Source of the DNA: Polyangium sp. 15x6
GTDB taxonomy: Bacteria > Myxococcota_A > Polyangia > Polyangiales > Polyangiaceae
Reading direction: 5' to 3'
NCBI RefSeq assembly: GCF_029960785.1
Contig: NZ_JASBQE010000011.1
Span: 124,001-188,000 of the forward strand
Length of the DNA stretch: 64,000 nt
Shown: one piece after another, positions 8,667 to 23,014 of the stretch
Position numbering within the stretch: position 1 is the stretch's first letter
Layout: the number at the start of each line of letters is the position of its first letter
Translations under genes and position numbers: made by a program
The notes under the pieces: model-generated
Seen by the model: only the letters and a program-made list of their open reading frames with translations
Told to the model about the DNA's origin: nothing
Database searches by the model: none

Positions 8667-9878
8667 TCACGCGGGGAGCGCCGAGACGGCTGCCCCGAGC
8701 GCTTTCGCCAGGTTCCCCCGCGCCGCCACCTCGACGCGCTCCATCCCGAGCCATTCGGCCATATGGGAGAGCTCCACCGCCAATAGGTCGGGCGTGTCGG
8801 GCCCCGCCCCGGGCTCGGTGTGGGAGGCCTGCACCCGCAGCACGCCTGCCTTGCGGTCGGCCTTCAGGTCCACCCGCGCGGTGATGGTGTCGCCTTCGAG
8901 GAACGGGAGCACGTAATAGCCGTGGGTGCGCTTCTCGGCCGGCGTATAGATCTCCAGCCGGATCTTCACCCCGAAGAGCCGCTCGGTGCGGTCGCGGAAC
9001 CAGATCAGGTTGTCGAACGGCGAAAGCAATGCGCGCGCCGCGATCCGACGCGGCGTCTGCGCCTCGGGATGCAGGTACGCCGGCTTCTGGAAGCCCTCGA
9101 CCGACACCTGCAAGAGGTCGCCGGCCTCGACGAGCTCCTGCACGCGGGCGCGAGCCACCTGCACGGGCAATCGGAAATAATCGCGCAGGTCGGCCTCGGT
9201 CGCGACGCCCATGGCACGCGCGGCCATACGGACGAGCTCGCGCTGGGCGTCGGCCTCGGGCGGCGTGGGCAAGGCCATGATGTCGGCAGGCATGACCCGC
9301 TCGGTCAGATCATACACCCGCTCGAAGCCGCGCCGCGTCGCCGTCGTCAGGTATCCAGCCCAGAACAACCATTCGAGCGCGCTCTTGCCGTCGGACCACG
9401 ACCACCAGCCCGGCGCGCCCCGGGGGCCCGTGGCGAAATCGCCCCCCGTGACCGGACCGCGCTTCTCGATCTCGGCGAGGACGCTCTTGATATAAGCGCG
9501 CTTCTCCTTGGCGAAGCGCGCGAGCCCGCCCCAGAGCTCCCCCGCCCGCGCGCGCGCCATGCGCCAGCGCAGCAAGGGCTGGAGCGCGAGCGGCATCAGC
9601 GAGGCCTCGTGCCCCCAGTACTCGAAGAGCGAGCGCTTCTTGCCCCAGGCCTCCTTTTCGAGGAGCGCCTGCGGATACACGCCGAGCCGCGAGAATGCGG
9701 GGAGGTAGTGCGTGCGGACGAGGACGTTGACGCTGTCGAGCTGGATCACGCCGAGCCGCTCCGCCGTCTTCGCGAAGTGGCGTCGGTTCACGCTCGCCGG
9801 GCGCGCTTCGGCAAAACCTTGCGCCGCGAGGGCGATACGCCGTGCTTGCTTGGCCGAGAGGTCGAGCTTCTCCTTCAT
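8667..9878 (-). CDS. ycaQ: YcaQ-family DNA interstrand-crosslink glycosylase (winged helix, HTH_42)
   Basis: The 403-residue length matches E. coli YcaQ (AlkX). The family is built of winged-helix modules and unhooks alkylated bases and DNA interstrand crosslinks; its catalytic signature is QxD, seen here as VIQLDSVNV with Q46 and D48. Other conserved blocks are LVRTHYLPAFSRLG, EYWGHEASLMP and ARALLSPFDNLIWFRDR. I place the start at ATG 9878 (MKEKLDLSAKQAR) because family members begin just before the QxD block; the frame remains open upstream to 10208, but that part is low-complexity. A crosslink-repair enzyme 6 kb from a putative nitrosourea cluster is suggestive as self-resistance, though YcaQ proteins are widespread. 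Confidence 0.87.
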   Translation of the reverse strand: MKEKLDLSAKQARRIALAAQGFAEARPASVNRRHFAKTAERLGVIQLDSVNVLVRTHYLPAFSRLGVYPQALLEKEAWGKKRSLFEYWGHEASLMPLALQPLLRWRMARARAGELWGGLARFAKEKRAYIKSVLAEIEKRGPVTGGDFATGPRGAPGWWSWSDGKSALEWLFWAGYLTTATRRGFERVYDLTERVMPADIMALPTPPEADAQRELVRMAARAMGVATEADLRDYFRLPVQVARARVQELVEAGDLLQVSVEGFQKPAYLHPEAQTPRRIAARALLSPFDNLIWFRDRTERLFGVKIRLEIYTPAEKRTHGYYVLPFLEGDTITARVDLKADRKAGVLRVQASHTEPGAGPDTPDLLAVELSHMAEWLGMERVEVAARGNLAKALGAAVSALPA

Positions 9879-10171
9879 GGGGGACCCGCATGGTAGCCGT
9901 GGTACGTCCGAGGGCCAAACGGGGCGTGAGCGCCGCGCCGTGCAGGCAGGCGCGTGGGCTCTTGACAAGGCACCCTCAACGCGTGCAAGCTCACGCCGCC
10001 ATGCTCTTCTTCTTCGTGTAAGCGCGAAGGCCCGTCCCACATCGTCGCCCCTGGTGTTTCTCGTACCCAGGGCGGACGGGGACGAGTGCGCGCGCTGCAC
10101 GTGATCTGCTGGCCGACCGAAGCCGCGCCGCGTACGCGCCATTCGTCCGCGTCCGCCCGATGGAGGAGCGC

Positions 10172-13135
10172 ATGGACTCCGCCTATGGCGCATCGAACCC
10201 GTTTGCAACGGGCTCGATGGCGCGCGTGATTGTTTTTGTTCGTCGAATGGTCGCCATTTCCGCAGTCCTCCGCCGGCCCGCCGTGCGTGCCGGCGCGTTG
10301 ATTCACCTCGCCGCTGCTGCGCGTGCGCTGGAGCGGCGATATCTCGGGTCCGTCGCGCGCGAGGGTGAGCTCTCCGGCGAGATCCTCGCGTCGCTGCGCA
10401 CGCTCGTGGGGCTACGCGAGGATTGTGAGGCCGGCCCGGCGGGAGCGTTGCTCGTGACGTATCTGGAGGAGCGGCTCGCGGCGGAGGAAATGCCGACCTC
10501 GCGGGCCCTCACGCGGATCGCCGAGCGCGCGGAAGGGCTCTTCGGCAGCGTCGAATTCGCGCGGATCCATCGTTTCAGCGTCGAGCTTTCGAGCGGCCGG
10601 CGTCGCGAGGCCCTCGAGCGCGCGAGGGCTTTGCCGAAGGGATGGCTGCGCGAGCGCGCCCTCGCGCGGATCGAGGACGGGATCGAGCATCACCCGGGGC
10701 GCGAGCGCGCGTGTTCGTTCGTGGGAAATCTCGATTCGCTGGAGGAGGCGCGCGTGTATACGCCGTCGTTGCCGCTCGTGCGCGAGCTCTTCGTGATGGG
10801 CGGGGACGCGTTGTCCCTCGCCGAGGAAATGCTGCCGCGCATCGACGGCAGCGCAGGACAGGAGGCGCGCGCGCTCCTTGCGATTGCGCGGTATCCGGAG
10901 CGTGGGCCCGCGGGAGTCATCGCGCTTCTGCGCGCCGTGCGGCATCGAAGCGCGTGGAATCATGGCTGGCTCGGCGCGGTCGGGGCTGCGCTCCACGCGG
11001 AGCGCCTGGACCACGCCGAGGCGCTGCTCGTGTACGCGCCGGGGCGCTATCTGCGAGGTCGCGCCGAGCTTGCCATCGCGGGGTCTCTCGCCGATCGGGG
11101 CGAGCGGCTCGCCGCAAGGCGGTGGATCCAGCGCGTGGAGGATCCCGCGCTCGCACCCGCGATCCAGCTCTTGCTCGCGCGCCTCGATCTCGACGCAGGG
11201 CTCGTGCGGCGAGCCGAGAAGCGCGTGCTTGCCTTGCCGATGACGCTGCTCGTCCCGCCGCGGCGCGCGGCGCTGCACGATCCGCGGCTCCCCGGCGAGC
11301 CCGAGCCGATGGAGACGCTGCTCGCTCGCGAGGCATGGCTGCTCCGGCACGCGCTCGTTCGTGCACGCGGTGGAGACGACCACGACGGCCTGCTGTCGCG
11401 TCGTGCCTTCGAGGATGCTTCGCTGCGCCGCGCGTTGTTCCATCGAATCAACCCGGGCAATGACGTTCTCGTCCCGGACGCGGCGTGGATCATGGAGCAC
11501 TGCCTGAAGCTCCTCGCGAGCGCCTCCACGCTGCAGGGCACGCTCGCCGAGCTCGACGGCGACGGGCCCGTCACGCCCGAGGCGGCCTTCGCGTTCGGCG
11601 CGCTCGGCCCGGCGTCGAGCTGGGATCGCTGCCGTCGTGATCCACGTTTCCGCGACGCCCTCGGCGCCGCGCGCGCCCACTACGACGAGGGGATCTCGAT
11701 CACGAGCATGCGCAAGCGGCGCCGCGTGGCGCTGCTCGACGCGGCCCGCGCCCACCTGCGCCGCGTGCTCGACGTGGATCTCGTACATGGCGAGGAAACG
11801 CGTGTCGCCACGATATCGCGGATTCGTTGCCTCCAGAACCTCGGCGGAGAGCAAGCCGCGACGATCCTGCAACGCGCGCACGCGCTTTCGGCGAAACACA
11901 TCGGGCACTGGGAGATCAGAAAAGGCCTGTTCCAAGCGCTCGCCGTGCTCTCGCCAGAGCGCGCGACGGAGGTTTTCGTCGAGCGTTACGACGTCTTCGC
12001 CCGCGATCGACAGGCAGGCTGGGCCGCGGAGCAGATCGAGAAGCAGGATCTGTTCCCGCCCGGCACCGCGAACGCGCACCGGTGTGTGTTCACGCGCCTC
12101 ATGTTGCGCCTCGGCGATCGTGTCTCCTCGTGGCTCGCCGACTTCGTCCGGACCTTTACGCGCGATGTCGGCACGCCTCCCGGCCCGGAGGTGCTGGCGA
12201 TCGTGGATACGCCCGATCTGCCGGAGGCCGGCGAGGAGCGCGTGCGCCAGATCCTCGAACGTCGCGAAGCACTGTTCCAGCATGATCCCGAGGAATTCGT
12301 GCGTGGGCTCGCCGAGGACCCAGATCGGCTGCGGCTGCTCTCCGCGTTGTGCCCCGTGTCGCCGGGGCACAACGCAGCCGCGTGGAGTGAACGCGATTGG
12401 CAGCGTATCGTGGAGCGCTTGCAGAAGGACGTCGGCCCGGTCGCCGTCGGCCCGATCGCGCGCCTGCGCCGACACTTGCCCGGCGCCGACCACGCCGTGC
12501 AGGCGCTCGTCCAAGGCGCGCCGCCCGTGCCCGCGTTGATGCGACCGCTGCCCCTGGGATCGAACGGCACCCTCGCGCTGCGGTACCTCGACAAACGGCG
12601 CGATTTCGCGGCGTTCTTGCGCTTCGCCGACTGCGTGCCGTGCTGCTTCAACAGCACGAGCTCCATGTATGCGTACGGGCACGATTCGGGCACCCAGCGC
12701 ATGGTGCTCGCGCTCTGGAAGGACCCGCTCTCCTTCTGCTTTCAGGTCGTGCGCGCGCCCCGCGCGGGCGTCGCGGAGGCGCAGGGTTTCGTGTTTGGCA
12801 GCTTCGGGCTCTGCGACGATGGGCCCGCGGTCCTGCTGAACGGCCTCTATTTGCGAAGGCAGATGCCGTGGTTGCGCTTCGCGATCGTCGAGGCCATCGA
12901 GCAAGCGCTCTGCCGGCCGCTCGGGATTCGCCTGGTCGCGATTGCCACGCGGTACGGCGGCTTGGGCCCGCTGCCGCCCGACTACACGACGCAGCCACGG
13001 CGCGTCGTGCACCGGCTGCGGGCGCTCTGCGAGCCGAACGGCGTCCTCATGACGCGCGTGTACGACGACTTGTCGTCGCGCATCAACGACGACATCACCT
13101 CGCTCCACGGCATTTCCTGGAAAAAAATCGCGTGA
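10172..13135 (+). CDS. large hypothetical protein (helical repeat body, conserved C-terminal domain)
   Basis: The start is ATG 10172, chosen because GGAGG sits five bases before it; in-frame ATGs at 10160, 10217 and 10250 are alternatives. The 987-residue product has no signal peptide. Residues up to about 750 are Arg/Ala/Leu-rich helical repeats (FVGNLDSLEEARVYT, YPERGPAGVIALLRAV). The C-terminal 180 residues are more globular, with CVPCCFNSTSSMYAYGHDSG and the aromatic stretch LRRQMPWLRFAIVEAIEQAL. An imperfect inverted repeat (ATCGAACCCGTT, loop TGC, AACGGGCTCGAT) lies inside the first codons at about 10191-10218. A TTGACA at 9962 has no fitting -10 partner. I do not recognise the family. 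It converges on the propeller gene. Confidence 0.7.
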   Translation: MDSAYGASNPFATGSMARVIVFVRRMVAISAVLRRPAVRAGALIHLAAAARALERRYLGSVAREGELSGEILASLRTLVGLREDCEAGPAGALLVTYLEERLAAEEMPTSRALTRIAERAEGLFGSVEFARIHRFSVELSSGRRREALERARALPKGWLRERALARIEDGIEHHPGRERACSFVGNLDSLEEARVYTPSLPLVRELFVMGGDALSLAEEMLPRIDGSAGQEARALLAIARYPERGPAGVIALLRAVRHRSAWNHGWLGAVGAALHAERLDHAEALLVYAPGRYLRGRAELAIAGSLADRGERLAARRWIQRVEDPALAPAIQLLLARLDLDAGLVRRAEKRVLALPMTLLVPPRRAALHDPRLPGEPEPMETLLAREAWLLRHALVRARGGDDHDGLLSRRAFEDASLRRALFHRINPGNDVLVPDAAWIMEHCLKLLASASTLQGTLAELDGDGPVTPEAAFAFGALGPASSWDRCRRDPRFRDALGAARAHYDEGISITSMRKRRRVALLDAARAHLRRVLDVDLVHGEETRVATISRIRCLQNLGGEQAATILQRAHALSAKHIGHWEIRKGLFQALAVLSPERATEVFVERYDVFARDRQAGWAAEQIEKQDLFPPGTANAHRCVFTRLMLRLGDRVSSWLADFVRTFTRDVGTPPGPEVLAIVDTPDLPEAGEERVRQILERREALFQHDPEEFVRGLAEDPDRLRLLSALCPVSPGHNAAAWSERDWQRIVERLQKDVGPVAVGPIARLRRHLPGADHAVQALVQGAPPVPALMRPLPLGSNGTLALRYLDKRRDFAAFLRFADCVPCCFNSTSSMYAYGHDSGTQRMVLALWKDPLSFCFQVVRAPRAGVAEAQGFVFGSFGLCDDGPAVLLNGLYLRRQMPWLRFAIVEAIEQALCRPLGIRLVAIATRYGGLGPLPPDYTTQPRRVVHRLRALCEPNGVLMTRVYDDLSSRINDDITSLHGISWKKIA

Positions 13136-15810: not shown

Positions 15811-16140
15811 TCAACGCTGCGTCGCCAGGATCAGGCGGCCGTCGACGGTGATGGGCTCTCCGCCCGGGTCCGGCAGGACGGCGGTCGCGCTGCCGGGTCG
15901 CATGACGAGCGGCGCGGCGTCGCGCTCCAGGCAACGGAGCGGAATGTCGTTGTCGTGCCACGGGCAACGAATGACGCCGCGGCTCGCGTCGAGCTGCCCG
16001 AGGTGCAGCGGACCGCCGCGATGCGGGCACGTCGTTCGCAGCAGATGAAAGACGCGCCCATCGGTCGTGCTCAGGAAAAAGCTCCGGCTCCCCGCCTTCA
16101 CGAAGCGGGCGTGGCCCGGATCGAACGTCACGACAGCCAT
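15811..16140 (-). CDS. Rieske [2Fe-2S] protein, stand-alone; candidate redox partner of the SznF-like enzyme
   Basis: The 109-residue protein is a single Rieske domain with CPH (C38, H40) and CPWH (C59, H62), spacing C-x-H-x18-C-x2-H, so the iron-sulfur cluster should assemble. Stand-alone Rieske ferredoxins hand single electrons to non-haem iron oxygenases. Its ATG lies 13 bases inside the end of the upstream diiron/cupin gene, in another frame, so the two are translationally coupled and probably made in similar amounts. That makes it a plausible physiological reductant of the diiron site, which must be reduced for each turnover. This is inference from linkage. No other electron-transfer gene is seen in the cluster. 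Confidence 0.85.
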   Translation of the reverse strand: MAVVTFDPGHARFVKAGSRSFFLSTTDGRVFHLLRTTCPHRGGPLHLGQLDASRGVIRCPWHDNDIPLRCLERDAAPLVMRPGSATAVLPDPGGEPITVDGRLILATQR

Positions 16141-17576
16141 TGCTCGTAATCTCCGATGGAATGGATGTCGTAGGTGCACTCCTCGGACTCGATGATCGCG
16201 CCGTGCAGCCGATTGCGACGGATCACCGTCCCCTCCCCCGCGTGCAGCAGCACGGACCGCTCGTGGCCCGTCACGAATCGCATGATGCCGGACTGGATGA
16301 AGCAGAGCTCGTCGCCGTCGTGCACGTGGGTCACCGAGAGCTCGCCGCGTGGCTCGATGAACCGCTGCACCTTCGGCTTCTCCCGGCTCTGCTCGATGTT
16401 CCGGTGGATCGCCGGGGCCAGCAATTTCCAGTGAGCGCTGCCGTCCGACCAGACGACCTGATCGAGGAAATCCTGATTCGCGATCCCGGTGAGGAACTTG
16501 CCCTCCTCGAATCCGCGCACGATGTCCGGGATGATGCCCTCCCCGAACATCTCCACGGCCGGCAGGATCATCTTGTCGAAGACCATCCGGCTGTGGTGTT
16601 GATCGATATGGGCGTGCTCCTGGAAGTAACGGACATCGACGCCCGGGCCGAAGACCTTGCGCAGCGTGTCGGCCATGCGGCGGCACATCTCGATGAAGCC
16701 GGTCTCGGCCTGGAAGAGCGCTCCGATGTACCGGAAAAAACGGCCGTGGTTGCGGCACACGTAATTGTAGTAGTTGTTCAGGAGGAGCGATGATGTCAGG
16801 TAAAACTGCCAGTACGTGTGCGGCATCGAGGCGAGGCCGACGCTCTCCATGGTGGCCTCGTAGAGCGAGCTGTGCCGGGTCCGATGTACGCCGTAGCCGA
16901 GCTCGTCGATGAGGATCTTGAACATCTCCGACTGGAGCGGCCCGTAGCTGCCGCCCACGTTCCGCCCCATCGCCGACGATTCGAGGAGGAAATCGCCCGC
17001 GAGCTGGACGAGGCACGTCCGGGCCGCATGCTGCGGGTTGTCCGAGGTGAGGATGGCGGTGGCCATCGAGCAATCGCTCCGTCGCCGCTCCTCGGCGACG
17101 AAGCTCTCGAAATACTCCCTCATGGAGGAGAGGGTCCAGCGGCCGGAGATCGAGATCGCGTCGTCGAGGAAGCCGAACAGGTACGACTCCAGCCACGGGC
17201 GCACGATGGCGCCGAGGACCTGCGCGCGCCGCCCGTAGAATTCATCCAGATCGGCGCGCTTCGACGCGAGGTCGCGGCGCGGGAGCAGGATGAAGTCGCT
17301 CTCGTAAATGGTGAGCAACGTGCGACACGCGGTCAGGCTGGTGTAGGTGAGCAGCTCCTCGCGGGCGAGCGGCTTGCCGAAATCGAGGTACTTGAACACG
17401 TGCGGCCGCAGCGGGCGGCGGTACGGGTTGTCCTCGACGAGCCAGGTTTCGATGTCGGCGAAGAGGTTGCTCTCGCCGAACTCCTCGAGGCACCGCGCGA
17501 AGAAATCGTAATCGTCGACGGCCGGGATTTTGGGGCGTTCATCCGAGCGGGGGCGTTTCTTGTGCTGCATCGTCAT
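16128..17576 (-). CDS. sznF: SznF-like nitrosourea synthase (haem-oxygenase-like diiron domain plus cupin)
   Basis: The 482-residue protein compares with 471 in Streptomyces SznF, which oxidises N-omega-methyl-L-arginine and rearranges it to an N-nitrosourea. The order is the same: N-terminal helical region, central haem-oxygenase-like diiron domain, C-terminal cupin. Diiron ligands are E199, E225, H235, E291, H321, D325 and H328 (LLESSAMG, IDELGYGVHRTRH, AETGF, EHAHIDQHH). Cupin ligands are H417, H419 and H458 (THVHDGDE, RNRLHGA). From memory, the SznF ligands are E189, E215, H225, E281, H311, D315, H318, H407, H409 and H448, so every one is matched at a constant offset of ten with no indel. 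The upstream neighbour is an arginine-methyltransferase-like gene, 23 bp away. No strong ribosome site is seen; ATG 17570 is an alternative start. Confidence 0.93.
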   Translation of the reverse strand: MTMQHKKRPRSDERPKIPAVDDYDFFARCLEEFGESNLFADIETWLVEDNPYRRPLRPHVFKYLDFGKPLAREELLTYTSLTACRTLLTIYESDFILLPRRDLASKRADLDEFYGRRAQVLGAIVRPWLESYLFGFLDDAISISGRWTLSSMREYFESFVAEERRRSDCSMATAILTSDNPQHAARTCLVQLAGDFLLESSAMGRNVGGSYGPLQSEMFKILIDELGYGVHRTRHSSLYEATMESVGLASMPHTYWQFYLTSSLLLNNYYNYVCRNHGRFFRYIGALFQAETGFIEMCRRMADTLRKVFGPGVDVRYFQEHAHIDQHHSRMVFDKMILPAVEMFGEGIIPDIVRGFEEGKFLTGIANQDFLDQVVWSDGSAHWKLLAPAIHRNIEQSREKPKVQRFIEPRGELSVTHVHDGDELCFIQSGIMRFVTGHERSVLLHAGEGTVIRRNRLHGAIIESEECTYDIHSIGDYEQWLS

Positions 17577-17599: not shown

Positions 17600-18733
17600 T
17601 CAAGCGATCGAGAACCGGATGCTCGTGTCGTCGTGCTTGCACGTGACGGTCACGACCTGGTTGCGCTCGACGTCGATCGGCGTCTCGAAGCACTGGACGG
17701 CCTGCATCCAGTGGCTCTGGTGGTTCGTCGGTGCGTTCGTCAGCACGACCCCGCGGCCGAGATCGAGCTCGAACCAGAACGCGATGCCGTGGACGCGGCC
17801 CCGCTGCTTCGTCGTGACGGATACGGTGCATGTCCGCGGATCCAGGGGGCCTCGCTCGAAGTCGAATTCGAAGGCCTCCGCGGCCGGGCTCAGGAAGGCA
17901 TGCGGGTGCGCGCGCAGGCGCACCGGAAAATACGTCTTCGTCGAGACCTGATTGAACAGGCTCACGTCGAAGCCGCCTGCCTCGAAGGCGAAGTTGTTGC
18001 GATGGACGGCGTCGCTCTCGAGGAGCTGGAAGCAGACCTTCGCCCGCCCCGGGATGATCTTCGCCTCCGGTCGCAGGAGTTTTTCCCGCGCGTGGCGGAC
18101 GATGGGCAAGATCCCTTCGCCGAGCAAACCACAATCGACGGTCTCGGTCACCAGCAAATCGGCCCGCCGGGGCATGTCCCGGCCGACGACGAGGTCCGTC
18201 GACACCTTGGGGATGACCGAGATGTGATGGTCGAGCTTGTTCTCCGCGATGATCCGCCGTGCCAATCGCGCGATCGCCACGACCGATTCGCAGGTGAACA
18301 CGGCCCCGGCCCCCGCGCGGGCCGCCATCATGGCGAGCAGCCCCGTCCCGGAACCCACGTCGAGCACCGTGCACGGCGAGCCTCCGATGGCGATCTCGAG
18401 CGCGCGCTCGAAGGCCTGGTTTCGCTCGTGATCGTTCAGCATCGCGAAATGACAGCGTGGAACGAGCTTGCGCTGGAGCCCATTCATCGTCAGAACGATG
18501 GCCTCGTTGTCGGCGTCGAGCGTCGAGGCCTCCTCGAATCGTTCGAGGGCCCGCTCCAGTTGGAAGCTCGCGGCGAGGTGACGGCCCTCCTCGACGAGGG
18601 CGCTCGCGCGCGCTCGATCGACCACCACGCGTAGCTTCGCGCGGGGGGCTCGCCGCTGCTCCCGGTTCGATTGCGGACCCGTATCGGATGCGGGTGAACG
18701 GTCCTTTCCGCTCATTCCCTCATACAACTTCAC
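17600..18733 (-). CDS. sznE: PRMT-type arginine N-methyltransferase, SznE-like
   Basis: The 377-residue enzyme is a class I SAM methyltransferase of the arginine-methyltransferase type, closest in motif to PRMT7/PRMT9. Motif I is VLDVGSGTGLL (123-133), with an acidic ribose contact in FTCES (E149). The guanidinium-binding double-E loop is LVTETVDCGLLGEG, with E197 and E206 nine residues apart as in PRMTs. Residues 40-90 form a TPR-like helical pair, a feature also of PRMT9. In streptozotocin biosynthesis SznE methylates free L-arginine to feed SznF, and the gene order here repeats that. The GTG start at 18733 is chosen for its strong AAAGGAGG nine bases upstream; ATG 18715 lacks room for a ribosome site. 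Substrate (free versus peptidyl arginine) is inferred from context. Confidence 0.87.
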   Translation of the reverse strand: MKLYEGMSGKDRSPASDTGPQSNREQRRAPRAKLRVVVDRARASALVEEGRHLAASFQLERALERFEEASTLDADNEAIVLTMNGLQRKLVPRCHFAMLNDHERNQAFERALEIAIGGSPCTVLDVGSGTGLLAMMAARAGAGAVFTCESVVAIARLARRIIAENKLDHHISVIPKVSTDLVVGRDMPRRADLLVTETVDCGLLGEGILPIVRHAREKLLRPEAKIIPGRAKVCFQLLESDAVHRNNFAFEAGGFDVSLFNQVSTKTYFPVRLRAHPHAFLSPAAEAFEFDFERGPLDPRTCTVSVTTKQRGRVHGIAFWFELDLGRGVVLTNAPTNHQSHWMQAVQCFETPIDVERNQVVTVTCKHDDTSIRFSIA

Positions 18734-19061: not shown

Positions 19062-20342
19062 ATGCCGAAGGTCCATCCGAATGCCGACCCGAGTGGCCGT
19101 CCCACCGTCCTCCTCGTGAGCAGCGGGTATCACGTTTACCGCGAATATCTCCTGCGAATGATCTCGCAGGCCGCGCGGGTGATTCTCTTCCTCGACCGGG
19201 AGCCTTCCTGGGAACGGTCGTACATCACGGATTCCAAGATCGTCGACACGCTCGACGCGGAGGCCATGATCACCGCCGTCCGCGAGGTCGCGGCGCGCAT
19301 CCCGATCGACGGCGTCATTTGCTGGGACGAGATCCGCATGGTGCACGCGGCCCGCGTCGCCGAGGCGCTCGGCGTGCCGGGCACCGACCCGGTCGCGGTC
19401 GCCCGGTGCCGCGACAAACACCAGACCCGCCGCGCATTGGCCGCGGCTGGCGTGCCGCAAGCGATTTCCAAGCTTGTCTCCTCCGTCGAGGAGGCGGCCG
19501 CGACGGCCTGGCAGATCGGGTACCCGGTCGTGGTCAAGCCGCGCGCGCTCGGCGCGAGCATCGGCGTGAGCCGCGTCGAGAGCCCCGACGAGCTCGCCGC
19601 GGCGTATCACCACGCCCGGACGTCGACGGAGGACGGCGTACCTCATTACGATGCGAGCGTGCTCGTCGAGGAGTACCTCGAAGGGCCGGAGATCAGCGTG
19701 GACGCCGCGTGGGTGAACGGCCGGCCGATCCCGCTCTTCGTCGCGCGCAAGATCCTCGGCTTCCCTCCGCATTTCGAGAAAATCGGGCACGTCGTGGACG
19801 CGGCCGATCCGCTGCTCCTCGACCCGGCCTTGCTCGGCGTGCTCGACGCGGCGCACCGGGCGGTCGGCTTCCGGACCGGGATCACGCATACCGGGCTCCG
19901 CCTGACCGACGCCGGTCCCAAGGTGATCGGAATCAACGCCCGGCTGGGCGGCGACCTCATTCCTTACATCGGCTGGGTCGCCTCCGGCATCGACGCGGGG
20001 CAGGTCGCCGTGGACGTGGCTTGTGGCCGCTCGCCGCGCGCCACGCCGAGCCGGCTGCGGGTCGCGTCCGTGCATTTTTTCTATCCGGCAGAGGACACGA
20101 TCGTGGGCGCGGTGGAGATGGATAAGGCCGCCCTGCCGGCCTCCGTGGACGTCGCAGCCGCCCTCGCGACGCCCGGGCAGCGCCTCGAATTGCCGCCGGC
20201 CGGGCACGTCACGAGCCGCTACGCGTACGTCGTCACGACAGGAAAAAACGCTGCAGAATGCGCCATCGGCGCCGACGTGGCCGCGCGCGTGATCAAGCTG
20301 CGCCCGGGGGAATCCCCGAAAGCCGTGGGAGGCGGGCAATAG
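19062..20342 (+). CDS. ATP-grasp ligase 1 (CarB-like), with altered metal-site motif
   Basis: The 426-residue protein is an ATP-grasp carboxylate-amine ligase, a class that joins an acyl phosphate to an amine. The N-terminal pre-ATP-grasp domain (PTVLLVSSGYHVYREY) is followed by ATP-binding blocks: GYPVVVKPRALGASIGVSRV, then VLVEEYLEGPEISVDAAW, then the distal metal loop VIGINARLGGDLIPY. In active relatives that loop reads IEINxRLGG; here the first glutamate, an Mg ligand, is glycine, so activity may be reduced or the metal site remodelled. ATG 19062 has AAGGAG eight bases upstream. It opens the rightward arm and is followed by one base and the transporter fragment. In this setting it probably extends or caps the nitrosated amino acid. 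Confidence 0.85.
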   Translation: MPKVHPNADPSGRPTVLLVSSGYHVYREYLLRMISQAARVILFLDREPSWERSYITDSKIVDTLDAEAMITAVREVAARIPIDGVICWDEIRMVHAARVAEALGVPGTDPVAVARCRDKHQTRRALAAAGVPQAISKLVSSVEEAAATAWQIGYPVVVKPRALGASIGVSRVESPDELAAAYHHARTSTEDGVPHYDASVLVEEYLEGPEISVDAAWVNGRPIPLFVARKILGFPPHFEKIGHVVDAADPLLLDPALLGVLDAAHRAVGFRTGITHTGLRLTDAGPKVIGINARLGGDLIPYIGWVASGIDAGQVAVDVACGRSPRATPSRLRVASVHFFYPAEDTIVGAVEMDKAALPASVDVAAALATPGQRLELPPAGHVTSRYAYVVTTGKNAAECAIGADVAARVIKLRPGESPKAVGGGQ

Positions 20343-20343
20343 C

Positions 20344-20799
20344 ATGAATACGCAGGCCAAGGGGGCCGCGTTGTTGCCCTTTGTCCTCTTCGTCCCCTTT
20401 TTGCTGTTCGGTTTGCCGGCGGGTGCCGTCGTCGACCGGCTGCCGCGGCGCTTCACGATGATCATCTGTGATGCCTCACAAGCCGTGATCTTCTTGACGG
20501 TCGCGGCGCTCGCCGTCCTCGGCGCGCTCTCGTTCCCGCTGCTCCTCGTCCTGGTCGCCCTCGCCGGCACGGCGACGCTTTTCTTCCAGGTCTCATATAC
20601 GTCGTACCTGCTCGCGTTGTGCCCCGACCCCCGCGATTTTAAGATCGGAAATGCGCGCCTGTTTTTCTCCGAATCGGTGTCACCAACGCTCGGCATTCGC
20701 GATGGCCTGGTCCAGCGCTGGGCCGCCGCGCGCGGCCGCGTCCTCTCCCCCTGCCCTTCGACCCCCACCGGCGCTCCGAGCGCCCCCGAGGAGGATTGA
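20344..20799 (+). pseudogene. truncated MFS transporter remnant
   Basis: The 151-residue frame matches the second to fourth membrane segments of an MFS drug exporter: PFLLFGLPAGAVVDRLPRR is the signature cytoplasmic loop, and LFFQVSYTSYLLALCP with NARLFFSESV is the usual following block. The first membrane segment is absent before it, and everything after SESV (eight or so helices) is missing; instead a Pro/Arg-rich tail runs to a stop next to the following gene. No continuation is visible in another frame, so this looks like a deletion rather than a single-base frameshift. It would not transport on its own. It marks a lost self-resistance or export step in the cluster. Confidence 0.75.
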
Positions 20800-21747
20800 A
20801 TGCCTCTCGCCGATGGCCTCCACACCTTCATCGACCGATGCAATCGGGCCATGCCGCCCGATTTCTACACGCGCCCCCTCGTGGAGCAGCGCGCTCTCTA
20901 TCTCGGGCTCACCCGCGAATTCCCGTACGAGGTGCCGCCGGACGTGACCATCACCGACGACGTGGTCGCCCATGGGCGGCGGCGCCTGTCGATGCGCGTG
21001 TATCGACCGCGCTCCCCGGTGGGCCGCGGCCTGCTCGTCTACATTCGCGGCGGCGGGTTCGTCGTCGGCTCGCTGGAGACGCACAACACCGTCGTCGCCG
21101 AGCTCGCCAGCCGCTCGAGGCTCGTCACCATTGCACCCGACTTTCGCATGGCACCCGAGCACCCCTTCCCGGCGGCCCTCGAGGACTGCTACGGCGCCCT
21201 TTGCGGCATCGTCGTCGAGGCCGCGCGGCTCGGCATCGATCCCGACCGGATCGTCATTGCCGGCGACAGCTCCGGCGCGAACATGGCCGTCGCCGTGGCC
21301 ATGATGGCCCGCGACCGCGGCGGCCCCAGGCTCTGCGGCCAGGCGCTCATCAGCCCGGTCCTCGACTTCACCCGCTGGCGCCGCGGCGGCGCCGACGCCC
21401 CGCTGCTCACGGGCGGCGAAATGGAATACTACACGGCCTGCTACGCGCCCGATCCCGGACAGGTCGCGCACCCGTACGTGTCCCCGCTCCTTCGCGGGGC
21501 CTTCGACGGCCTGCCGCCTGCGTACCTGATGGGCGCGGAGCTCGACTCCTTGCGTGTGGACGCGGAAGCCTACGCACGCCACCTTCGCGCGCACCGCATT
21601 GCCGTCGACCTCGTCATCGAGCCCGGCCTCGTGCATTCCGCCGTCCGCGCGCGCGGGCTCTGTCCGCAGGTCGAGGACGCGTGGGCCAGATACTGCAGCC
21701 GTGCGGCCCGGCTCGCTTGCGTGGAGGAAGACCATGTGGCGAAGTAA
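20800..21747 (+). CDS. HSL-family alpha/beta hydrolase
   Basis: The 315-residue protein belongs to the hormone-sensitive-lipase esterase family. The nucleophile elbow is AGDSSGAN with S157. The oxyanion segment reads YIRGGGFVVGS where the family has HGGG, so its leading histidine is R83. A C-terminal acid (AELDSLRVDAEAYA) and histidine (PGLVHSA) complete the triad. The fold and family length are complete. Its ATG directly follows the stop of the MFS remnant and its 3' end overlaps the next ligase gene by 14 bases, so it belongs to the rightward cluster operon. It may trim an ester or amide during maturation, or hydrolyse the product. The substrate cannot be read from sequence. Confidence 0.85.
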   Translation: MPLADGLHTFIDRCNRAMPPDFYTRPLVEQRALYLGLTREFPYEVPPDVTITDDVVAHGRRRLSMRVYRPRSPVGRGLLVYIRGGGFVVGSLETHNTVVAELASRSRLVTIAPDFRMAPEHPFPAALEDCYGALCGIVVEAARLGIDPDRIVIAGDSSGANMAVAVAMMARDRGGPRLCGQALISPVLDFTRWRRGGADAPLLTGGEMEYYTACYAPDPGQVAHPYVSPLLRGAFDGLPPAYLMGAELDSLRVDAEAYARHLRAHRIAVDLVIEPGLVHSAVRARGLCPQVEDAWARYCSRAARLACVEEDHVAK

Positions 21748-23014
21748 CCCGAATGGGCCGGCCGTGATCGTCGACCCCTATTCCTCGGGCGCCCTCTTCG
21801 CGCCCGCGTTCGCGGCGGCCGGCGTTCCGGTCGTGGCGGTCGTCTCCAGCCCCTCGCCGCCGGCCGTTTACGCTGCCTCCTACAGACCGGAGCATTTCGA
21901 GACGATCCTCACCGCGACCGACGACCTCGAGCCCTTGGTCGCGCGCCTGCGGGCCTTGCGCCCCCGGTGCGTGCTGCCGGGCTGCGAATCGGGCGTGGAG
22001 CTCGCGGACGCGCTCGCCCCGCGGGTCGTCCCGGACGTCGCCAACGACCCCGAGAAGGCGAGCGCGCGCCGGCACAAAGGCGACATGGCTGCGGCCGTGG
22101 CCCGGGCCGGCTTGCCCATCATCCGCCAGCTCTGCACGAGCGACGCCGACGAGGTCGAGGCATGGCTCTGCCGCTCGCACCTCGCCGGCCGGGACCTCGT
22201 GATCAAGCCGCCGAAGAGCGCCAGCACGGACGGCGTGACCCGCGTCCCCCGCGGCGAAGGTTGGCGGGAGGTGTTTCATTCGATGCTCGGCCGTCCGAAC
22301 CGCCTCGGCATCGTCAATGATCGGCTCGTCGTGCAGGAACACGTGATCGGCACCGAATACGTGGTGGACACGTTCACCTACGAGGGCAAACACACCGTCA
22401 CCGACGTGTGCCGCTACCACAAGGTGGACAACGGCCCGCACATGGCGGTGTACGAGCGCATGGAATGGTTATCCCCCAAAACTCCGGGGATCGAGCGCTT
22501 GATCGGCTACACGCGTGGCGTGCTCGACGCGGTCGGGATCCGGTTCGGCGCGGCGCACGTGGAGCTGATGCTCACCCGCGAGGGGCCTCGGCTCATCGAG
22601 GTCGGCGCGCGCCCGCACGGCGGCGGCCAGCCGAGGTTTTGCCGCGTCGCGACCGGCGACAGCCAGGTGGACCGGACCGTGCGATATTTCGCTCGGCTCG
22701 GGTACGTCCGCGAAGGCTTCGGCCTGCAATCGCATGTCCTCGTGGTGTTCCTGATCGTCCGGGCGCCGGGTATCGTGCGGAATGCGGAGGTCTTCGCCGA
22801 TGTCGAGGCGCTCCCGAGCCACCATTTCTCGGTGATCCGCTTCCGGAACGGCGATCGATTGCAGCCCACGAGGGATCTCTTCGGCAGCCTGGACCTCGGC
22901 TTCGTGGTCCTCGCGCACGCGGACCGCTCGCAGGTGCTATCCGATTACCACAAGATCCGCGACAGGGAGCGGCAGCTTCAGCTCGACGATTCACGAGGAG
23001 GAGCGCCACCATGA
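21734..23014 (+). CDS. ATP-grasp ligase 2
   Basis: The 426-residue ATP-grasp ligase starts MWRSNPNGP, with GGAGGAAG seven bases upstream and inside the end of the hydrolase gene. ATP-binding blocks are DLVIKPPKSASTDGV and RLVVQEHVIGTEYVVDTFTY. The metal loop is RLIEVGARPHGGGQPRF: the glutamate lacking in ligase 1 is present here, while the usual asparagine two residues on is glycine, as in amino-acid ligases of the IEVGxRxxGG subgroup. The N-terminal domain begins AVIVDPYSSGALFAPAF. It is likely to form an amide or peptide bond. Two non-identical ligases in one cluster imply two condensations, or one active and one accessory enzyme. Confidence 0.87.
   Translation: MWRSNPNGPAVIVDPYSSGALFAPAFAAAGVPVVAVVSSPSPPAVYAASYRPEHFETILTATDDLEPLVARLRALRPRCVLPGCESGVELADALAPRVVPDVANDPEKASARRHKGDMAAAVARAGLPIIRQLCTSDADEVEAWLCRSHLAGRDLVIKPPKSASTDGVTRVPRGEGWREVFHSMLGRPNRLGIVNDRLVVQEHVIGTEYVVDTFTYEGKHTVTDVCRYHKVDNGPHMAVYERMEWLSPKTPGIERLIGYTRGVLDAVGIRFGAAHVELMLTREGPRLIEVGARPHGGGQPRFCRVATGDSQVDRTVRYFARLGYVREGFGLQSHVLVVFLIVRAPGIVRNAEVFADVEALPSHHFSVIRFRNGDRLQPTRDLFGSLDLGFVVLAHADRSQVLSDYHKIRDRERQLQLDDSRGGAPP

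What the first reader, a model, noticed from the sequence alone, without database searches (positions are those of the whole stretch)
16128..17576. SznF-type nitrosourea synthase in a myxobacterium-like genome, all metal ligands conserved at constant offset
Seen: a 482-residue protein with E199, E225, H235, E291, H321, D325, H328 (diiron) and H417, H419, H458 (cupin). Established (recalled): SznF of streptozotocin biosynthesis uses E189, E215, H225, E281, H311, D315, H318 and H407, H409, H448. The offset is +10 for all ten, so the two proteins align without gaps across 260 residues. The order of domains and length agree. Such a match is not expected by chance and points to N-hydroxylation followed by N-nitrosation chemistry outside Streptomyces.
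Basis: partly seen in the sequence, partly recalled or inferred. Interest (0 to 1): 0.95.

Follow-up and report, generated by a model that had tools for sequence, protein, structure and literature searches.

The report
Nitrosourea synthase with Rieske ferredoxin partner
A soil myxobacterium (Polyangium) carries a close relative of the enzyme that builds the reactive group of the cancer drug streptozotocin, in a small gene cluster that also encodes an iron-sulphur protein likely to feed it electrons; the enzyme family is known, but that electron partner is a testable prediction.

Summary
A 482-aa protein on the MINUS strand (16128-17576) is a full-length SznF homologue: E = 6e-147, about 50% identity, all seven diiron ligands, three cupin histidines and Tyr459 conserved at offset +10, no gap from 199 to 458. 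The genome is a Polyangium. Homology and context support the interpretation, but SznF homologues in diverse bacteria are already in print (PMC10849742).

New here: a Rieske [2Fe-2S] gene overlaps or closely follows the enzyme gene in 11 of 11 records with a complete diiron site, including cupin-less Rhizobium homologues, and in 0 of 3 with a dead one; in two of those three a ChmN-family N-oxygenase domain sits alongside instead. Best reading: the Rieske protein is the electron donor of the N-hydroxylating domain. The cluster adds an arginine-methyltransferase-like gene and two amino-acid ligases, so a small N-methyl-N-nitrosourea peptide is likely. DNA-methylation repair genes lie near two relatives' clusters. 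In this species the exporter gene is badly truncated, and two sister genomes lack the synthase but keep other cluster genes: the pathway is eroding in the genus. No activity is shown.

The parts
16128..17576 (-). SznF-type N-nitrosourea synthase gene (482 aa: N-terminal, HDO diiron and cupin domains)
15811..16140 (-). Rieske [2Fe-2S] ferredoxin-like gene; its ATG overlaps the SznF stop by 13 nt; motif CPHRGGP...CPWH
   Evidence: Pfam Rieske 31.9 bits, cut-off 20.3; overlap; motif
17600..18715 (-). PRMT7/9-like arginine N-methyltransferase gene (SznE-like role); start inferred at ATG of MSGKD
   Evidence: Pfam PRMT_C 51.9 bits, cut-off 27; PDB PRMT7 E 9.8e-42; start
19062..20342 (+). ATP-grasp amino-acid ligase 1 (BL00235/BacD-like); start inferred
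20344..20799 (+). MFS exporter remnant, 151 codons: against two sister genomes it lacks about 131 nt at the 5' end and 245 codons inside (junction 20691-20693)
20800..21747 (+). alpha/beta hydrolase (Abhydrolase_3)
   Evidence: 49% identical copy in the Methylobacterium cluster
21734..23014 (+). ATP-grasp L-amino-acid ligase 2, the ligase shared with other szn-like clusters
   Evidence: PDB 30vh E 4.5e-55; 59% Methylobacterium, 44% Pantoea, 33% Gloeothece, 56% G465

Best explanation
A szn-type pathway. (1) The PRMT-like enzyme makes N-omega-methyl-L-arginine (inferred). (2) SznF hydroxylates the N-delta and N-omega' guanidine nitrogens at its diiron site; each turnover needs two electrons, which the gene-overlapping Rieske protein delivers (inferred from co-occurrence). 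(3) The mono-iron cupin rearranges the dihydroxy compound to N-delta-hydroxy-N-omega-methyl-N-omega-nitroso-L-citrulline (established for SznF; inferred here from conserved ligands and Tyr). (4) ATP-grasp ligases join this amino acid to others, giving a small peptide with a nitrosourea group that releases NO and/or a DNA-methylating species; hydrolase and exporter handle it (inferred). In this species the exporter gene is truncated, so export is lost or done by another protein.
For: SznF homology and ligands; same side of the tree as SznF. Same neighbours elsewhere: PRMT, SznF, Rieske, ATP-grasp in that order in G465 and Methylobacterium; the same four gene types in Pantoea. Rieske motif beside 11 of 11 records with a complete diiron site (10 distinct sequences), 0 of 3 with a degenerate one (tblastn also finds none in those three). 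Rhizobium homologues with diiron ligands but no cupin keep it. In G466 and G467 a YqcI_YcgG (ChmN-family) match ends under 300 bp from the diiron-dead homologue; G465, G000, G339, G377 have none. SznF and Rieske genes overlap in the window (13 nt) and by annotation in L005, L006, L007, L008. Repair genes: Ada, AlkA and an Oxygenase-NA family gene within about 9 kb upstream of Methylobacterium sznF, Ada directly upstream of Pantoea sznF; a passage of PMC12224297 implies O6-methylguanine-DNA methyltransferase genes in streptozotocin clusters. Window SznF dN/dS 0.24 and 0.30, like flanking genes.
Against: No biochemistry. PRMT and ATP-grasp families are not exclusive to such clusters. No PRMT match in the Azospirillum, Gloeothece or Rhizobium stretches and no ligase match in Azospirillum or Rhizobium. 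Other HDOs are supported by ascorbate or NADH with phenazine methosulfate (stated in PMC13185094), so a protein donor may not be essential. No O6-methylguanine methyltransferase gene near the window cluster: the genome's three matches are on other contigs. The exporter is truncated. Cupin_2 Pfam score just under cut-off (25.9 vs 27.2). The Rieske rule rests on about seven lineages with and two without.
Confidence: 0.7

Rival explanations
1. The SznF homologue works on a peptide-bound (methyl)arginine: the ligases act first and the enzyme modifies the di- or tripeptide, as the HDO MboA does in mangotoxin biosynthesis.
For: Two ATP-grasp ligases lie in the cluster; MboA acts on Leu-Ala-Arg made with two ATP-grasp ligases (PMC13185094, passages and section 7).
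Against: SznF itself takes free N-methylarginine (PMC11705231, passages), and the window protein is 50% identical with no gap in the ligand span.
Confidence: 0.2
2. The pathway is decaying and makes nothing in this species; the synthase gene is a recent relic.
For: The exporter lacks 245 internal codons and about 131 nt at its 5' end; G368 lacks SznF, Rieske residues 1-72, ligase 1 beyond residue 109 and most of the exporter; G378 has matches only to the two ligases; SznF is in 3 of 6 genus genomes, own included.
Against: SznF, PRMT, Rieske, both ligases and the hydrolase are open along the length of their relatives; window comparisons of these genes give dN/dS 0.12-0.36, flanking genes 0.17-0.29. 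The exporter gaps are seen in one draft assembly.
Confidence: 0.25
3. It makes a diazeniumdiolate (graminine) metallophore building block, as GrbD, MobE and ChmM are thought to.
For: Those proteins are SznF homologues (PMC10849742, passages).
Against: The window protein is 26% identical to the Tistrella homologue and 50% to SznF, keeps all diiron ligands, and no NRPS was among the neighbours given to Pfam.
Confidence: 0.04

Closest known systems
SznF/StzF of streptozotocin biosynthesis (Streptomyces achromogenes)
   Same: HDO + cupin domains, all ten metal ligands and Tyr459, no gaps in the ligand span; an arginine methyltransferase gene in the cluster
   Different: 50% identity; myxobacterial; ATP-grasp ligases in the cluster; a Rieske gene overlaps it (whether the Streptomyces cluster has one could not be checked: the 2019 Nature paper is not held)
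G465 myxobacterial cluster (same family, genus g256, unnamed)
   Same: PRMT, SznF, Rieske, ATP-grasp ligase and an MFS gene
   Different: Its SznF is 68% identical to Streptomyces SznF but 50% to the window's; amidase gene instead of alpha/beta hydrolase; one linked ligase
GrbD / MobE / ChmM diazeniumdiolate enzymes
   Same: Cupin histidines and Tyr in the three examples read here
   Different: Diiron ligands lost and no Rieske in those three; ChmN-family domain linked in G466 and G467
MboA-MboB (mangotoxin)
   Same: HDO with a genomically linked redox protein and two ATP-grasp ligases
   Different: MboB is an NAD(P)H flavin/Fe2S2 reductase, here a small Rieske protein; MboA makes an alkyne

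Membership tests
SznF-type N-nitrosourea synthase | HDO and C-terminal cupin domains in one chain | tested here: met
   phmmer 31-479 vs SznF 22-469; Haem_oxygenas_2 89.2 bits over cut-off 28.9; Cupin_2 25.9 bits, just under cut-off 27.2
SznF-type N-nitrosourea synthase | seven diiron ligands | tested here: met
   7 of 7
SznF-type N-nitrosourea synthase | three cupin His and Tyr459 | tested here: met
   4 of 4
SznF-type N-nitrosourea synthase | groups with SznF, not with MobE-type homologues | tested here: met
   12-row tree: Tistrella, G466, G467 separated at 100/100; the order within the SznF side is partly unresolved
SznF-type N-nitrosourea synthase | arginine methyltransferase (SznE-like) in the cluster | tested here: met
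   PRMT7/9-like gene 17600-18715; not compared with SznE itself, whose sequence I did not have
SznF-type N-nitrosourea synthase | converts N-omega-methyl-L-arginine to the N-nitrosourea | not testable with these tools
   needs purified enzyme
Diazeniumdiolate (GrbD/ChmM/MobE) enzymes | NRPS context; degenerate diiron site in the ChmM-type group | tested here: not met
   diiron site complete; no NRPS domain in the 14 window proteins given to Pfam
Rieske [2Fe-2S] protein (partner) | C-x-H...C-x2-H cluster motif | tested here: met
   CPHRGGPLHLGQLDASRGVIRCPWH; Pfam Rieske over cut-off
Dedicated HDO-redox partner pair (as MboAB) | partner reduces and is needed by the HDO | not testable with these tools
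   only co-occurrence and gene overlap were examined

The most novel reading that the evidence does not exclude
SznF-family diiron N-oxygenases come with a dedicated Rieske ferredoxin that travels with the diiron domain, not with the cupin, in at least four classes of three phyla; it would be a Rieske-type HDO redox pair, and the Polyangium cluster uses it to make a nitrosourea-bearing peptide by NRPS-free ligation.
Probability: 0.5. Interest if true: 0.65.

Novelty: new member of a known kind. Interest (0 to 1): 0.5.

Why it matters
[quoted passage not shown] A linked Rieske protein gives a direct candidate for SznF's natural electron donor, testable in one reconstitution. The cluster also predicts NRPS-free peptides carrying an NO-releasing, DNA-methylating group from myxobacteria, and the genus offers fuller, damaged and synthase-free versions of one locus for comparison.

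Tried and rejected
AlphaFold model of the window protein with a 2-sequence alignment: mean pLDDT 33.9; unusable, not searched further, so no structural superposition is claimed. Viral contigs with alignment A1: 33 stretches matched a pattern, none encoded a relative. The AlkZ-like DNA glycosylase (window 8667-9878) as a self-resistance gene: rejected as specific evidence, because it is also present at the G368 and G378 loci, which lack SznF. The genome's other seven Haem_oxygenas_2 matches were not followed. For the Tistrella homologue position 189 reads E in one alignment and R in another; positions 215, 225, 315 and 318 are lost in both. The 2019 Nature paper and McBride 2020 and 2021 could not be read, so whether the Streptomyces cluster holds a Rieske gene is unknown to me. 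Searches for an SznF-Rieske link in the held library: SznF and Rieske together only in PMC13108848 among the 12 listed of 13 papers; the Rieske passage shown there concerns a dioxygenase; 0 papers; 1 paper, the same; 3 listed of 5 papers, none with Rieske. One search (ferredoxin terms) listed 10 of 14 papers; of those I looked only in PMC10849742 and PMC13185094 for ferredoxin. In the motif scan one loose C-x-H...C-x2-H hit in L017 lacks the HRGG motif and was not counted.

Full report
OBSERVATION. The protein lies on the minus strand, 16128-17576. phmmer against PDB sequences gives three SznF chain sequences at 5.9e-147 to 7e-147 (one labelled 'cupin domain-containing diiron protein', 6vzy) and then a fall to 9.5e-4. 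In a MAFFT alignment all ten metal ligands and Tyr459 match SznF, offset +10, no gap from 199 to 458, identity 50.4%.

ORGANISM. The window is G000:C22:124001-188000 of a 13.38 Mb genome with one match to the protein at E <= 0.001. The named relative is Polyangium fumosum DSM 14668 (85% identical); the contig of that record has the same length as G377:C186 of the same genus (49,916 bases), so I take G377 to be that species.

NEIGHBOURHOOD. Minus strand: a PRMT7/9-like methyltransferase (17600-18715), SznF, then a Rieske protein whose ATG overlaps the SznF stop by 13 nt. Divergent, plus strand: ATP-grasp ligase 1, an MFS remnant, an alpha/beta hydrolase and ATP-grasp ligase 2. Flanking genes look like genus background: the patatin is in 5 of 6 genus genomes and the 635-aa protein in 4 of 6, own included, and the AlkZ-like glycosylase also lies at the SznF-less loci of G368 and G378.

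DISTRIBUTION. Own genome included, SznF homologues are in 3 of 6 genomes of the genus, 6 of 183 of the order and 2 of 377 in a phylum sample. The three beyond the genus are G465 (50% identical) and G466 and G467 (23%, diiron site degenerate). Plasmids: 8 of 72,556 records: Methylobacterium indicum, Azospirillum argentinense, Gloeothece verrucosa, Pantoea dispersa, Tistrella mobilis and three Rhizobium leguminosarum. The genome-contig scan with a single protein finds close relatives only and gave one locus, so absence elsewhere is not shown; I had no genome handle in other phyla.

TREE. In a 12-row tree SznF pairs with G465 (100/99), the three Polyangium sequences form a clade (96/100), and Tistrella, G466 and G467 stand apart at 100/100; three inner branches are unresolved. 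The two myxobacterial genera thus hold different szn-type lineages; horizontal transfer is my inference.

RIESKE PARTNER. A six-frame scan for C-x-H...C-x2-H finds a Rieske motif just downstream of SznF in the window, L002, G339, G465, L005, L006, L007, L008 and L015 and in L030 and L031, which are identical to each other: 11 of 11 records (10 distinct sequences) with all seven diiron ligands. It finds none in L009, G466 and G467, whose diiron sites are degenerate (0 of 3), and tblastn with the window Rieske finds none there either. Pfam's Rieske model is over cut-off in the seven of these that I scanned: window, G465, L005, L006, L007, L008, L015. The Rhizobium homologues keep the diiron ligands and lack a cupin (best tblastn match of the window cupin region E = 2.2) yet keep the Rieske gene. 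In G466 and G467 a YqcI_YcgG match, the family of the heme guanidine N-oxygenase ChmN (PMC10849742, passages), ends under 300 bp from the SznF homologue, while G000, G339, G377 and G465 have no such match (2 of 6 genomes); in G466 it is the first domain of an NRPS-like frame. At the G368 locus, where SznF is missing, only Rieske residues 73-106 match. So the Rieske gene follows the oxygen-activating diiron domain, not the cupin. The diiron reaction consumes electrons and the cupin rearrangement does not (established chemistry, recalled), which fits a donor role. The sample is small: about seven lineages with, two without.

PRODUCT LOGIC. PRMT-like genes accompany SznF in Polyangium, G465, Methylobacterium and Pantoea but tblastn finds none in the Azospirillum, Gloeothece or Rhizobium stretches; ligase 2 has a match in Gloeothece (33%) but none in Azospirillum or Rhizobium. 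The best PDB match of the window PRMT is PRMT7; that PRMT7 makes only monomethylarginine is recalled. Neither PRMT nor ligase 2 is specific to such clusters. PRMT relatives occur in 8 plasmid records, two of them beside SznF; of the other six only Tistrella's record is also in the SznF search, some 240 kb away; I opened three of the six. Ligase 2 relatives occur in 136 plasmid records and, at E <= 1e-60, in 8 of 183 genomes of the order, including G466 and G467 more than 1.5 Mb from their SznF homologues. Ligase 2 best matches a solved L-amino-acid ligase, 30vh, at 4.5e-55. The peptide product is an inference of moderate strength.

SELF-PROTECTION. Upstream of the Methylobacterium cluster, on the other strand, lie AlkA, Ada and a 2OG oxygenase of the DNA-repair family Oxygenase-NA; Pantoea has Ada directly upstream of sznF. 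A 2025 paper reports, in a Streptomyces region, two O6-methylguanine-DNA methyltransferase genes similar to genes of the streptozotocin clusters (PMC12224297, one passage read). Near the window no such gene was found; the genome has three family matches on other contigs. This is against a dedicated repair gene in Polyangium.

EROSION. In G339 and G377 the MFS gene runs at least 396 codons from the point where the window copy begins to align, and in G339 the frame is open further upstream. The window copy has 151 codons: 245 codons are missing inside, in frame, and about 131 nt at the 5' end. G368 lacks SznF, most of Rieske and ligase 1 beyond residue 109, and keeps MFS residues 284-396 of 396, so its break points differ from the window's (117/362). 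G378 has matches only to the two ligases. Pairwise dN/dS with the window: SznF 0.24 and 0.30, Rieske 0.35 and 0.36, flanking patatin and glycosylase 0.17-0.29; the highest value in the set is Rieske between G339 and G377, 0.47. The synthase has thus been under purifying selection, but the exporter damage counts against an active pathway in this strain.

KNOWN VERSUS NEW. Wide distribution of SznF homologues, and a network cluster of SznF plus 135 proteins in szn-type gene clusters, are in print (PMC10849742, passages read). ATP-grasp ligases near HDOs are in print (at least 25 unique clusters, PMC13185094 section 7). I found no statement of a Rieske partner for SznF in the held library, but the primary 2019-2021 papers are not held, so this is no proof of novelty. 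Hence: new member of a known kind, with a testable partner prediction.

Searches were made for this check; they added the second exporter gap, the missing PRMT and ligase in the Rhizobium loci, and the NRPS fusion in G466.

Noticed in passing
window 20344-20799; L010-L014, L016, L017: The cluster's MFS exporter lacks 245 internal codons and its 5' end in the window genome, and two sister genomes show different deletions, with the synthase missing: repeated erosion of one cluster within a genus.
   Followed up: yes
L015 5755-7318; L030, L031: Rhizobium leguminosarum plasmids carry a cupin-less SznF-like diiron protein plus Rieske; in L015 GTP cyclohydrolase II and a deaminase are annotated nearby: possibly N-oxygenation in a pterin-type pathway.
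   Followed up: partly
G466:C1:11770399-11772656; G467:C1:12004524-12006802: Diiron-dead SznF homologue beside a YqcI_YcgG domain that lies in an open frame of about 7,000 codons; in G466 that domain is followed by adenylation, carrier and condensation domains, and a TonB-dependent receptor gene lies near: a likely diazeniumdiolate siderophore locus with the N-oxygenase fused to an NRPS.
   Followed up: partly
L005 5858-7693; L007 13390-14217: A MOSC + FAD/NAD + [2Fe-2S] protein sits upstream of the Methylobacterium PRMT gene and a MOSC-domain gene is annotated near the Gloeothece cluster: either the reductase feeding Rieske or a reductase of N-hydroxy compounds.
   Followed up: partly
window 8667-9878: AlkZ-like DNA glycosylase (QLD motif) about 6 kb from SznF, present also at the two sister loci without SznF.
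   Followed up: yes
window 10160-13135: 991-aa ORF with no Pfam match, conserved at the G339, G377 and G368 loci.
   Followed up: no
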